Assembly (NCBI RefSeq): GCF_014199525.1
Contig: NZ_JACHNU010000001.1
Location: 310,001 to 374,000 of the forward strand
Origin: Conexibacter arvalis
Lineage (GTDB): Bacteria; Actinomycetota; Thermoleophilia; Solirubrobacterales; Solirubrobacteraceae
Reading direction: 5' to 3'
Length of the DNA stretch: 64,000 nt
Position 1 is the first letter of the stretch. Each line of letters opens with the position of its first letter. Of this stretch, positions 24,414 to 29,925 are shown one piece after another. A program made the position numbers and the translations under genes. Below the pieces are notes generated by a model. That model had not been told where the DNA came from and did no database searches. It saw only the letters and a list, made by a program, of their open reading frames with translations.

Positions 24414-24470
24414 CGAGAGCGGCCCGACCGCAGGGCGCCGCGAACGACGCGCCCGACGTGAAGACCCGCT

Positions 24471-24606
24471 GCGCCGGCGCGCCCCAGGTCTGGCCCGCCG
24501 GCGCGCATCGGGTCTGGGCCGCCGGCGCGCGCCAGGTCTGGCCCGCCGGCGCGCGCCAGGTCTGGCCCGCCGGCGCGCGCCAGGTCTGGCCGGCCGGCGC
24601 GCGCGG
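24471..24606. repeat. 24-bp tandem repeat made of palindromes
   Basis: About five and a half copies of a 24-base unit, CCAGGTCTGGCCCGCCGGCGCGCG with small changes. Each unit holds two palindromic cores, GGCGCGCGCC and CCAG-GT-CTGG. It fills the gap between the ABC-F and FUSC genes. It can be read through as QVWPAGAR repeats, but I take it as non-coding. Confidence 0.7.
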
Positions 24607-24667
24607 GTCCGGTCGGCCGACCGCGAGGGTGGCCGCGGCGACGGTTGTCCGGAATGCTGTGCGGCAG

Positions 24668-26870: not shown

Positions 26871-27194
26871 TCACGGGCCCCATTCGAGCGCGAGCGGCGA
26901 GGGCGGGATTCTCGTCTCGCCGTGGACCTGCGGCAGCGCCAGGCCGACCTCGTCGGCGAAGCACCACGACCACGTCTCGCCCGGCTCCAGCGAGCGGATC
27001 AGGGGATGGCCGGAGTCGGCGAAGTGTCTTCTCGCGTGCTGGTTGGGCGAGTCGTCGCAGCAGCCGACGTGACCGCAGCCGAGGCAGATCCGCAGATGGA
27101 GCCATCTGTCGCCGGTCGCGAGGCAGTCCTCGCAGCCGTCGACCGACGCGGGCAGCTCGGTGACGGCGACGGTGTCGAGGTGGGTGCAGGCCAT
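26871..27194 (-). CDS. UBP-type zinc-finger protein
   Basis: 107 residues, nearly the whole length being one ZnF-UBP domain. Metal ligands are visible as CTHL near the start, CEDC, then CLGCGHVGCCDDSPNQHARRHFADSGHP, the core signature. In eukaryotes this domain binds the C-terminal Gly-Gly of free ubiquitin; stand-alone bacterial copies are widespread and their partner is unknown. GGAGGG precedes ATG 27194 and TAGCCT, a possible -10 box, lies about 45 bases upstream. It is not clearly linked in function to its neighbours. Confidence 0.9.
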   Translation of the reverse strand: MACTHLDTVAVTELPASVDGCEDCLATGDRWLHLRICLGCGHVGCCDDSPNQHARRHFADSGHPLIRSLEPGETWSWCFADEVGLALPQVHGETRIPPSPLALEWGP

Positions 27195-27260: not shown

Positions 27261-28424
27261 TCACCCTCCGCCGCGCTCGAAGACGGGCGGCGTCAGCGGC
27301 GGAAGCGGCCCGCCCATCGCGTTCAGTCCGGCGGCGAACATCGTGGCCCGCTCGGCGGTCATGCCGTCCGTGACGTCGAGCCCGCTGCGCCCGTCGATCC
27401 CGTCCGGAAGCGCCATCGGGTCGATCGCGACGACGCCCAGCAGGCGATCGTCGACGATGATCGCGACGTGCTGGACGGCGGCGAGCTCCGGCAGGCCCGG
27501 ACGCAGCAGCGCCTGGCCGCGCCGCGAGACCGCGCGCGTGAGCTCGTGCACGCGGGCGTGCGCCTCGGCCCGGAAGGCGTAGCGGACCGCCGGACCGCCG
27601 CTGCCGCGCGGGACGGCGCGCACCCGCTCGACGTCGGCGCCGGTCAGCGGCGGCCTCCCGCGCAGCACGTGGAAGCGGGCACGCGGATCGTCGCGGCCCG
27701 GCCCCATGCCGTCCGGGCCGAGCGCCTGCACGATCGCCGTCGGGCCCGGAACGCGCTCGGCGGCCGCCTCGGCGTCGGCGAGCGACATGCCGGCGCCCGG
27801 CTGGCCGGCCATCATGCTCGTCCGCAGCGACCTCGCATCGGTCCGGCTCGCGATCGGCCGCCCGTCGCGGTCGACGACGCTCTCCTCCCAGTCGTAGAAC
27901 GCGAGCTGGCCCGCTCCGAGCGCGGCGCCGATCTGGACGCGCTGGTTGGCGCGACCGCCCCGCCCGCTCGTCCACGACATGCCGGCGGCGACCCGCGAGC
28001 CGTCGCCGCGCACCTCCGCCGCCGGGTAGCCGACCGCGGCGAGCCGCGCGCGCACGCGCTCCAGCACGACGGCGTCGGCGCTCGCGCCCCATCTGACGGA
28101 GAAGCGCAGCCGCACGTCGCCGCGGACCGCGAGCGCCGCGCCGCTCCCGCCGCTCCCGTTCCCGCGGACGGTTGGCGCGCCGCGATCGCCGCGGAGCGTC
28201 GTGTCGTCCGCGGCGCCGCCGAGCGGCCCGCCGGGGACGAGCGCGACCGCCAGGGCGGCGACGAGCAGGGCGCCGGCGGCGGTGCCGCCCGCGATTCGGC
28301 GGCGGCTGCGGCGCCAGCGCAGGCGGCGCTCGGCCTCGATCAGCTGGCGGCCGACTCTCGCGAGCGGGTCGCCGTCGGGGGCGGGCGCGGAGGGCGCCCG
28401 CGGCGGGTCTCTGGTCACGGTCAT
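27261..28424 (-). CDS. Membrane protein with SecD-P1-like domain, partner of an ECF sigma factor
   Basis: 387 residues. A basic cytoplasmic start of about 43 residues leads to one membrane helix (AGGTAAGALLVAALAVALVPG, about 44-65), and the rest should be outside. The outer part resembles the P1 region of SecD. An early ferredoxin-like unit reads LRFSVRWG, then ADAVVLERVRARLAAVGY. Later comes PPLTGADVERV, then YAFRAEAHARVHELTRAVSRRG, then VAIIVDDRLLGVVAIDP, then SGLDVTDGMTAERATMFAAGLNAMGGPLP, which parallels SecD's head domain ending (substrate-exit GGFTxEEAxxLAxxLRAGALP). The six RND-type helices of SecD are missing. Its ATG overlaps the sigma factor stop (ATGA), so it is a candidate anti-sigma or sensor subunit rather than a translocase part. 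Confidence 0.7.
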   Translation of the reverse strand: MTVTRDPPRAPSAPAPDGDPLARVGRQLIEAERRLRWRRSRRRIAGGTAAGALLVAALAVALVPGGPLGGAADDTTLRGDRGAPTVRGNGSGGSGAALAVRGDVRLRFSVRWGASADAVVLERVRARLAAVGYPAAEVRGDGSRVAAGMSWTSGRGGRANQRVQIGAALGAGQLAFYDWEESVVDRDGRPIASRTDARSLRTSMMAGQPGAGMSLADAEAAAERVPGPTAIVQALGPDGMGPGRDDPRARFHVLRGRPPLTGADVERVRAVPRGSGGPAVRYAFRAEAHARVHELTRAVSRRGQALLRPGLPELAAVQHVAIIVDDRLLGVVAIDPMALPDGIDGRSGLDVTDGMTAERATMFAAGLNAMGGPLPPLTPPVFERGGG

Positions 28425-28996
28425 GCGTCCTGCTCCCGGGTTCGGTCGATGCGCGCGCCGAGCCGGCGCAGCCCGCGGTGGACGCGGGCGCGCACGTTCG
28501 CCTCGCTCGTGTCGAAGCGCGCCGCCAGCTCGGCGTAGCCGGCCTCCTCGACGACGCGCGCCAGCACCGCCTCACGCTGGTCGGGCGGCAGATCGGCGAC
28601 CAGCCGCATCGCCAGCTCGCCGTCGGCCTGCTCGCTGAGCCGCCGGTCGACCTCGGCGATCTCGTCGCGCGTCAGGTCGAGCGCGTCGATCCGCAGACGC
28701 CGCAGCGCGCGGCCGGCGACATACGAGCGGCGCCGCGCGTCGAGCAGCTTGTGGTTGGCGATCCCGAACAGCCACGCGCGCACCGGTCCGTCCGCCGCGC
28801 GGTAGCGGGCGGCCGCGTGCAGCGCCGACGCGAACGTCTCGGCGGTCAGGTCGAGCGCCTGCTCGGTCGAGCGCGTCCGCGCCCGCAGATAGGCGAGCAC
28901 GGCCGGCGCGTGGCGCTCGTAGACGGGGCCGAAGGCGGCCGGGTCGCGGCGCGTGGCGGCGAGCAGCGCCGCGTCGGAGTCGTCTGCTGGTGCCAT
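28421..28996 (-). CDS. ECF RNA polymerase sigma factor
   Basis: 191 residues. Region 2 is about residues 12-80 (FGPVYERHAPAVLAYLRARTRSTEQALDLTAETF, then VRAWLFGIANHKLLD). Region 4 is about 130-180 (LPPDQREAVLARVVEEAGYAELAARFDTSEANVRARVHRG). The size is that of a simple ECF factor that normally needs an anti-sigma partner. The stop overlaps the start of the SecD-P1-like membrane protein, the usual place for an anti-sigma gene. TAG and ATG overlap at the start (GTAGATGG), so no standard ribosome-binding site is obvious. It is divergent from the orphan at 29110. Confidence 0.92.
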   Translation of the reverse strand: MAPADDSDAALLAATRRDPAAFGPVYERHAPAVLAYLRARTRSTEQALDLTAETFASALHAAARYRAADGPVRAWLFGIANHKLLDARRRSYVAGRALRRLRIDALDLTRDEIAEVDRRLSEQADGELAMRLVADLPPDQREAVLARVVEEAGYAELAARFDTSEANVRARVHRGLRRLGARIDRTREQDA

Positions 28997-29097
28997 CTAC
29001 CCAGTGCTTCGCACGGGCGCCGGCGCTGTGACAGCACGACGCCGCCGCCGGTGGGAGATTCTCTCCGACGGCCCCCTCGCCGCTTGCCAGGCCGATC

Positions 29098-29109: not shown

Positions 29110-29925
29110 GTGCCCCCAGCTCCGCAGCGCAACCGGCCCGGCCGCGCGATCGTCCACCTCGACGCCGGCAGACCGGGCGTGGCGCTCCCGCTCGGCAGCG
29201 ACGTCGTCGAGGTGCTGCGGACGAAGGCCGCGGCGCTCGAGGCGCTCGCCGCGACGGTGGAGCGGATGCGGGCCGACGGCTGGCGGACCGAGGGCGCCGT
29301 CGGGCTCGCCTTCTCGCTCGGGATCGACGGCGTCAGCTTCGAGCGCGACCTGTCGGACTTCTCGCGGCTGGAGCGGGTCGCGCACGCGCTGCCGACCGGG
29401 ACCGTCGTCCACTGGCACCGCCACGACCGCACGTGGCGCACCGGCGGCTGGATCGCCGGCCTGCCGGCCGATCAGCAGCTCGGCGAGGCCGACGACCTGC
29501 CGGTGATCGTCCAGTCCGCCCGCAGCGGGCGCCAGACTCGCTGCGAGAGCCAGCAGCAGCTGGTCGAGGCGGTGCTGCTCCACCTCGGCGAGGTCGCCGA
29601 CGATCTCGACCTCGACCGGGCCCAGGCCGCACGCGCGGCCGAGGTGCGCGCGCAGATCGACGCGCTGCGGGCCGGCGAGCCGCCGCAGGTCTACTACCGC
29701 TTCGAGGGCTCGCCCGAGGCGGAGGACGCGCTCACCAGCGCCCACGTCGTCAACGTGCAGCCGGAGGGGCTCGCGCGCTGGGAGGGCTTTCTCGACGGCG
29801 TCACCGGCGAGCCGCTGTACGAGGGCGACAGCCGCCTGGAGGGACTGTCGGGGCTCGCCTTCCGCGACGGCTTCCGGCTCGGCGCCGAGCGCGCCCACCT
29901 GCTCGCGCCCCGCGGCCGGGGCTGA
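29110..29925 (+). CDS. Conserved-looking protein of unknown function
   Basis: 271 residues, soluble, without a signal peptide. I do not recognise it. The N-terminal half alternates strands and helices (AIVHLDAGRPGVALPLGSDVVEVL, then EGAVGLAFSLGIDGVSFERDL) and has a His-rich strand VVHWHRHDRTW near residue 100. A Cys follows in RQTRCESQQQLVEAVLL. A long helix with LGEVADDLDLDRAQAARAAEVRAQIDAL comes next, then YYRFEGSPEAEDAL and a C-terminal domain. The codon pattern is that of a real gene and it has a good -10 box. It is divergent from the ECF sigma/SecD-P1 pair, so it might be a target of that sigma factor, though the box here is the standard type. Confidence 0.55.
   Translation: MPPAPQRNRPGRAIVHLDAGRPGVALPLGSDVVEVLRTKAAALEALAATVERMRADGWRTEGAVGLAFSLGIDGVSFERDLSDFSRLERVAHALPTGTVVHWHRHDRTWRTGGWIAGLPADQQLGEADDLPVIVQSARSGRQTRCESQQQLVEAVLLHLGEVADDLDLDRAQAARAAEVRAQIDALRAGEPPQVYYRFEGSPEAEDALTSAHVVNVQPEGLARWEGFLDGVTGEPLYEGDSRLEGLSGLAFRDGFRLGAERAHLLAPRGRG

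What the first reader, a model, noticed from the sequence alone, without database searches (positions are those of the whole stretch)
27261..28996. ECF sigma factor coupled to a membrane protein built on a SecD-P1-like domain
The membrane protein has one helix and then segments matching the SecD periplasmic P1 domain order (PPLTGADVERV, HELTRAVSRRG, VAIIVDDRLLGVVAIDP, then the GM-TAERATMFAAGLNAMGGPLP ending), but none of SecD's RND helices. Its ATG overlaps the sigma factor stop, the usual anti-sigma position. This suggests a translocase sensor domain reused to sense envelope or secretion state; I know of no such characterised anti-sigma type.
Basis: partly seen in the sequence, partly recalled or inferred. 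Interest (0 to 1): 0.75.

Follow-up and report, generated by a model that had tools for sequence, protein, structure and literature searches.

The report
Sigma-factor partner with a SecD domain
In a soil bacterium and some of its relatives, the gene for a stress-type sigma factor is followed by a membrane protein whose outer part derives from SecD, a piece of the protein-export machinery, and because this pairing arose with several unrelated sigma factors the cell may be using an export-motor part as a sensor.

Summary
At 28421-28996 (-) lies an ECF sigma factor. At 27261-28424 (-), overlapping it by ATGA, lies a 387-aa protein: a 43-residue basic N-terminus, one transmembrane helix, then a SecD P1 domain (base and head) with no RND helices. 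Homology to the genome's own intact SecDF is E 2e-21. A model built without any SecD sequence still retrieves SecDF P1 as the only strong PDB match.

The pair is not a one-off. Orthologues in two Conexibacter genomes also follow a 71%-identical sigma. A survey of 354 Thermoleophilia genomes found five more ECF/P1-only pairs in another genus and another family. On the sigma tree the P1-linked sigmas fall in four places, and one clade is rejected (p about 1e-36). In lineages related to the window's, the partner's N-terminal motif is that of ordinary ECF partners with unrelated ectodomains.

All 21 paralogous ECF loci checked, and the P1 operons of the window's sigma subfamily, carry an upstream GTCACA site, which suggests autoregulation.

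[quoted passage not shown] What it senses (exported or unfolded polypeptide?) is untested. I found no published precedent in the library searched. New variant of a known kind.

The parts
28421..28996 (-). ECF sigma factor, 191 aa
   Evidence: Pfam Sigma70_r2 1.7e-14 and Sigma70_r4_2 2e-14; orthologues 71% identical in G004 and G005
27261..28424 (-). Single-pass membrane protein, 387 aa, probable anti-sigma factor with SecD P1 ectodomain
   Evidence: Open frame, GC3 0.95, -4 overlap with the sigma stop; orthologues 39-42% identical
28296..28370 (-). Residues 19-43: basic cytosolic motif DPLARVGRQLIEAERRLRWRRSRRR, proposed sigma-binding part
   Evidence: Invariant positions across orthologues; motif shared with partners of paralogous ECFs, for the window only after orthologues are added to the model
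28239..28295 (-). Residues 44-62: transmembrane helix, N-in by the positive-inside rule
   Evidence: Hydropathy
27273..28121 (-). Residues 102-384: SecD P1 domain (base and head)
   Evidence: Match to own SecDF; AlphaFold2 models and PDB comparison with 3aqo
27321..27680 (-). Residues 249-368: P1 head subdomain
   Evidence: Pfam PF22599, below cut-off in the window, above it in orthologues L123 and L124
29009..29033 (-). Putative ECF promoter TGTCACA-N15-CGA just upstream of the sigma gene
   Evidence: Conserved in the P1 operons of L038, L039, L148, L149; GTCACA upstream of all 21 paralogous ECF loci

Best explanation
The two genes form an autoregulated ECF sigma / membrane regulator pair. 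The 387-aa protein is most likely a single-pass anti-sigma factor: its short basic cytosolic N-terminus binds and holds the sigma at the membrane, and its extracytoplasmic part is a SecD P1 domain recruited from the SecDF motor and freed from the RND helices. When P1 binds or loses its ligand the sigma is released, by regulated proteolysis or by a conformational change, and transcribes its own operon and perhaps others. By analogy with SecDF, where the P1 head holds the substrate-binding pocket, the likeliest ligand is an emerging or unfolded exported polypeptide, or the Sec machinery itself. Shown: domain homology, operon structure, recurrent linkage, conserved promoter-like site. Inferred: sigma binding, autoregulation, the release step, the ligand.
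For: SecD P1 homology by sequence and by two structure models. Overlapping gene pair in the window and in G004, G005, G340, G341, G215, G216 and G226. P1-linked sigmas fall in four places on the sigma tree; one clade rejected, p-AU 3.7e-36, so the association recurred. Partners of 22 related ECFs have the same layout (short basic N-terminus, one helix, variable ectodomain), 19 of them with a -4 overlap. The N-terminal motif goes with the sigma lineage: present in L122-L124 and G340/G341, not in the G215, G216 and G226 proteins whose sigmas are unrelated. GTCACA site upstream of 21 of 21 paralogous loci and 5 of 5 P1 operons of this subfamily. The P1 head of SecD carries a substrate-binding cavity (PMC11470409).
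Against: No anti-sigma domain model matches. No complex was modelled and no experiment exists. The window's own N-terminus does not score with the model of 22 paralogue partners (524 of 1000 shuffles as high), only with the model that includes its orthologues. The P1 sequences are divergent, so the ligand may have changed. P1-only lipoproteins without a sigma neighbour show that a free P1 can have another role.
Confidence: 0.75

Rival explanations
1. It is an anti-sigma factor, but the P1-derived ectodomain now binds something unrelated to secretion (lipid, wall fragment, small molecule); the SecD ancestry explains the fold only.
For: Strong divergence of the ECF-linked P1 sequences (long branches); the SecD linker between base and head is shortened in the window and in L122 and L123; related ECF partners carry many other ectodomains.
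Against: The P1 association recurred with unrelated sigmas, which suggests that a property of P1 itself was wanted; the P1 head passes Pfam in seven of nine ECF-linked members.
Confidence: 0.35
2. The membrane protein is not an anti-sigma factor but an effector or accessory secretion factor (a P1 holdase anchored by one helix) that the sigma switches on; the operon is a response module, not a sensor.
For: P1-only lipoproteins (G079, G080, G081) and a P1-only gene between ruvB and yajC-secDF (G214) exist without a sigma and look like accessory factors.
Against: Position directly after the sigma with overlap, N-terminal motif shared with partners that have unrelated ectodomains; no other candidate anti-sigma gene in the two-gene operon.
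Confidence: 0.15
3. A decaying duplicate of secD that happens to sit beside an ECF gene.
For: Divergent P1 sequence with shortened linker.
Against: Intact frame with GC3 0.95, conserved in three relatives, recurrent pairing in other lineages.
Confidence: 0.02

Closest known systems
SecD / SecDF, P1 domain (Pfam PF21760 and PF22599; Thermus SecDF P1, PDB 3aqo)
   Same: Homologous P1 base and head, extracytoplasmic, anchored by one N-terminal helix
   Different: No RND helices, no SecF part, no GG motif; basic cytosolic N-terminus of its own; linked to an ECF sigma; the genome has a separate intact SecDF
Single-pass anti-sigma factors of ECF sigmas (RseA, RsiW, CnrY and RsbN types)
   Same: Gene directly after the sigma, short cytosolic N-terminus, one helix, extracytoplasmic sensor part
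   Different: No recognisable class I anti-sigma domain; cytosolic part of 43 residues is shorter than the 50-residue limit used for class I (PMC7406223); ectodomain of SecD origin
One-helix partners of ECF sigmas in actinobacteria (e.g. NCBIfam CU044_5270 family; the uncharacterised partners of this ECF subfamily in Thermoleophilia)
   Same: Operon position, N-terminus and helix layout; the G216 relative matches the N-terminal part of CU044_5270 weakly
   Different: Ectodomain replaced by SecD P1; no match over the family cut-off
VemP / SecD2F2 secretion monitor of Vibrio
   Same: A regulatory circuit that reports on SecDF activity, with the P1 head near the translocating chain (PMC11470409, PMC7793623)
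   Different: VemP is an arrest peptide; here a copy of the P1 domain would be the sensor of a sigma pathway
ECF41 sigma factors
   Same: -35 element TGTCACA with about 16-base spacer (PMC3426412)
   Different: No C-terminal regulatory extension (191 aa protein); has a membrane partner; -10 element CGA rather than CGTC

Membership tests
ECF sigma factor | Sigma-70 regions 2 and 4, no region 3, about 190 aa | tested here: met
   Pfam regions 2 and 4 over cut-off, 191 aa; TIGR02937 over cut-off
SecD/SecDF translocase subunit | P1 domain | tested here: met
   sub-threshold for Pfam in the window itself
SecD/SecDF translocase subunit | RND transmembrane helices and SecF part | tested here: not met
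   One helix only, 387 aa
SecD/SecDF translocase subunit | Score over the NCBIfam cut-off for SecD or SecDF | tested here: not met
   No SecD model matches the window protein at E 1; relatives match at 17-66 bits, cut-offs 244 and above
Class I anti-sigma factor | Recognisable class I anti-sigma domain of at least 50 cytosolic residues | tested here: not met
   No Pfam or NCBIfam match; cytosolic part 43 residues
Anti-sigma factor, any class | Binds and inhibits the neighbouring sigma | not testable with these tools
   No complex modelling or bench data; position and layout only
CU044_5270 family | Score over the NCBIfam cut-off | tested here: not met
   No match for the window protein; 19.1 bits against 100 for the G216 relative
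ECF41 sigma factor | Large C-terminal regulatory extension | tested here: not met
   The sigma ends at residue 191, just after region 4; feature from PMC3426412
ECF41 sigma factor | -35 element TGTCACA | tested here: met
   29009-29033

The most novel reading that the evidence does not exclude
The P1 domain of the export motor has been recruited repeatedly as the ectodomain of membrane anti-sigma factors and directly reads export: it binds polypeptides emerging from SecYEG, in competition with SecDF, so that the sigma reports the load or failure of Sec export.
Probability: 0.35. Interest if true: 0.82.

Novelty: new variant of a known kind. Interest (0 to 1): 0.64.

Why it matters
Anti-sigma factors are known with many ectodomains, but I found none described that carries a domain of the Sec motor. 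If the domain still binds exported chains, it gives a direct transcriptional readout of Sec export in actinobacteria and an isolated, motor-free P1 with which to study what P1 recognises. The wider pattern (one ECF subfamily, one N-terminal motif, one promoter element, swapped ectodomains) makes a whole set of uncharacterised Thermoleophilia sensors readable.

Tried and rejected
(1) Homology of the extra 174-178 aa between helix and P1 in L122-L124 to ectodomains of paralogous partners: not significant, so I do not claim that P1 was added to an older ectodomain. (2) Single or several origins of the P1 parts: unresolved. One clade of all ECF-linked P1 domains is not rejected (p-AU 0.43) although their sigmas clearly are not one clade; shuffling of one P1 lineage between operons and independent recruitment both remain open. 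Conexibacter and g13 sigmas as one clade is borderline (p-AU 0.054). (3) Regulon prediction by TGTCACAN15-16CGA in the own genome: only two sites upstream of ECF operons (this one and a paralogue's); the two others lie inside or at the edge of coding sequence. (4) Search for the pairing outside Thermoleophilia: 296 phylum genomes, shallow scoring; the candidates read were SecD/SecDF proteins or P1-only genes without a sigma. Absence is not shown. (5) PDB sequence search: nothing useful. (6) Literature searches for ECF or anti-sigma with SecD or P1: no precedent in the open-access library; the ECF reclassification paper and the 2015 actinobacterial survey are not held, so a mention there is not excluded. 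(8) A first pass over the own-genome sigma neighbours read minus-strand loci in the wrong orientation and was replaced.

Full report
Observation. On the minus strand the window holds an ECF sigma gene (28421-28996, 191 aa) and, starting in its stop codon (ATGA, 28421-28424), a 387-aa gene (27261-28424). The sigma passes Pfam for regions 2 and 4. The second protein has a 43-residue basic N-terminus, one hydrophobic helix (44-62) and about 325 extracytoplasmic residues. Pfam sees SecDF_P1_head at 249-368, but below its cut-off (E 0.0022). The genome is a Conexibacter or close to it by its neighbours.

SecD P1. Searched against its own genome, the protein hits the frame of the intact SecDF (identified) at E 2.3e-21 and 8e-6, covering residues 113-365. 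Three relatives of the same genus (about 40% identical) are closer to SecD, and two pass the Pfam cut-off. L124 still has the full SecD P1 including the linker between base and head, at about 46% identity to SecD of the same genus. AlphaFold2 with seven rows gave mean pLDDT 71 (most of P1 75-93), and with four ECF-linked rows and no SecD row 65, with nearly the same elements. Both retrieve SecDF P1 as the only strong PDB match, Foldseek E 5.8e-9 and 3.9e-9 for 3aqo_C. VIA-align gives Z 14.5 over 205 residues against 7.7 or less for chains outside the SecDF family. RND helices are absent, so the protein cannot be a motor.

Linkage. In G004 and G005 the orthologue directly follows a sigma about 71% identical to the window's; in G002 the contig ends just upstream. 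A survey of 354 genomes of the class, with follow-up, found further P1-only single-pass proteins directly after an ECF gene: G340 and G341 (same family, another genus), and G215, G216 and G226 (another family). All five pass Pfam SecDF_P1_head; of their sigmas, the four scanned have Pfam sigma-70 hits, and that of G216 was read as a close relative of the G215 sigma. The genes overlap by 4 to 11 bases where read. Deeper searches of family f10 and of selected genomes added none. P1-only proteins without an ECF gene also exist: lipoproteins in G079, G080 and G081, and a gene between ruvB and yajC-secDF in G214. Only four candidates per genome were scored in the wide survey, so 8 of 354 is a lower bound.

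Recurrence. On a tree of 35 sigmas the P1-linked ones fall in four places (Conexibacter, g13, g96, g103), starred branches force four changes, and one clade is rejected (p-AU 3.7e-36); joining Conexibacter and g13 is borderline (p-AU 0.054), so at least three lineages are secure. The P1 domains are too divergent to say whether they come from one SecD-derived domain passed between sigma operons or from several recruitments. Within Conexibacter the least divergent member groups with the SecD proteins of its own genus plus one more (100/99), which fits a local origin there.

The pair within its family. Partners of 22 related sigmas (40-55% identity), from this and related genomes, are one-helix proteins, 19 of them with the same -4 overlap. 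Their short N-terminus has a common motif (hydrophobic-x-x-L-[EG]-x-x-L-x-x-A-x-x-R, then a basic stretch), and their ectodomains vary widely. An HMM of these N-termini picks out L122-L124 above all 1000 shuffles each and G340/G341 above all but two or three; it does not pick out the f10 proteins, whose sigmas are unrelated, nor the window protein itself; with the orthologues added the window scores above all its 1000 shuffles, though narrowly (10.6 against 9.7 bits). So the N-terminus goes with the sigma lineage and the ectodomain is the exchangeable part, as expected of an anti-sigma factor.

Promoter. TGTCACA-N15-CGA lies at 29009-29033, just upstream of the sigma gene. [TG]GTCACA with CGA 15-16 bases on is present in the P1 operons of this subfamily (5 of 5), and GTCACA is present upstream of all 21 paralogous loci checked; a random 200-base stretch of the window has NGTCACA-N14-17-CG[AT] with frequency 0.00075. 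It is absent from the two f10 loci tested. The -35 element equals that reported for ECF41 (PMC3426412), though this sigma lacks the ECF41 extension. Autoregulation is the inference; other targets are not evident.

Mechanism. Shown: architecture, homology, operon overlap, recurrence, conserved promoter-like site. Inferred: the N-terminus holds the sigma; P1 is the sensor; release by proteolysis (site-2 protease homologues are present, as in all 14 control genomes) or by conformational change. In SecDF the P1 head carries the substrate-binding pocket (PMC11470409), so an exported polypeptide is the first ligand to test. Rivals are a changed ligand and a P1 accessory factor that is not a regulator.

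Novelty. I found no description of a SecD-P1 anti-sigma type in the open-access library; the two papers most likely to list such a group were not held. I rate it a new variant of a known kind: an ECF/membrane-regulator pair with an ectodomain not seen before in this role.

Noticed in passing
L102-L121 and own-genome loci L057, L065, L066, L130, L134: An expanded Thermoleophilia ECF subfamily: GTCACA upstream of every locus checked, one-helix partners with a shared N-terminal motif and many unrelated ectodomains.
   Followed up: partly
L034:2968-4077, L035:2737-3792, L155:2066-3082: SecD P1-only lipoproteins (signal peptide with lipobox) in other Solirubrobacterales-like families, not next to a sigma gene; function unknown.
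   Followed up: partly
L154:2600-3751: A P1-only membrane protein gene between ruvB and yajC-secDF in genome G214, apparently a tandem partial copy of secD.
   Followed up: partly
L164:1364-3317: Two P1-only frames in tandem in genome G444 (other class of the phylum), no sigma nearby.
   Followed up: no
L161, L162, L171, L172: Streptomyces-sized genomes carry a SecDF-like gene near a response regulator or histidine kinase gene, another possible link of SecDF to signalling.
   Followed up: no
29110-29922 (+); L038:5172-5981; L039:5246-6040: Divergent neighbour of the sigma gene, about 265-271 aa, conserved in the relatives, no Pfam match.
   Followed up: partly
26871-27194 (-): A zf-UBP (ubiquitin-hydrolase-type zinc finger) protein of 107 aa follows the pair on the same strand; not there in the relatives read.
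   Followed up: no
24458-24620 (+): Repeats (WPAGARQV...) at the start of the frame of a FUSC-like membrane protein; the true start is probably further in.
   Followed up: no
L153:2058-3458: The G226 P1 protein has about 130 further residues after P1, unlike the others.
   Followed up: no
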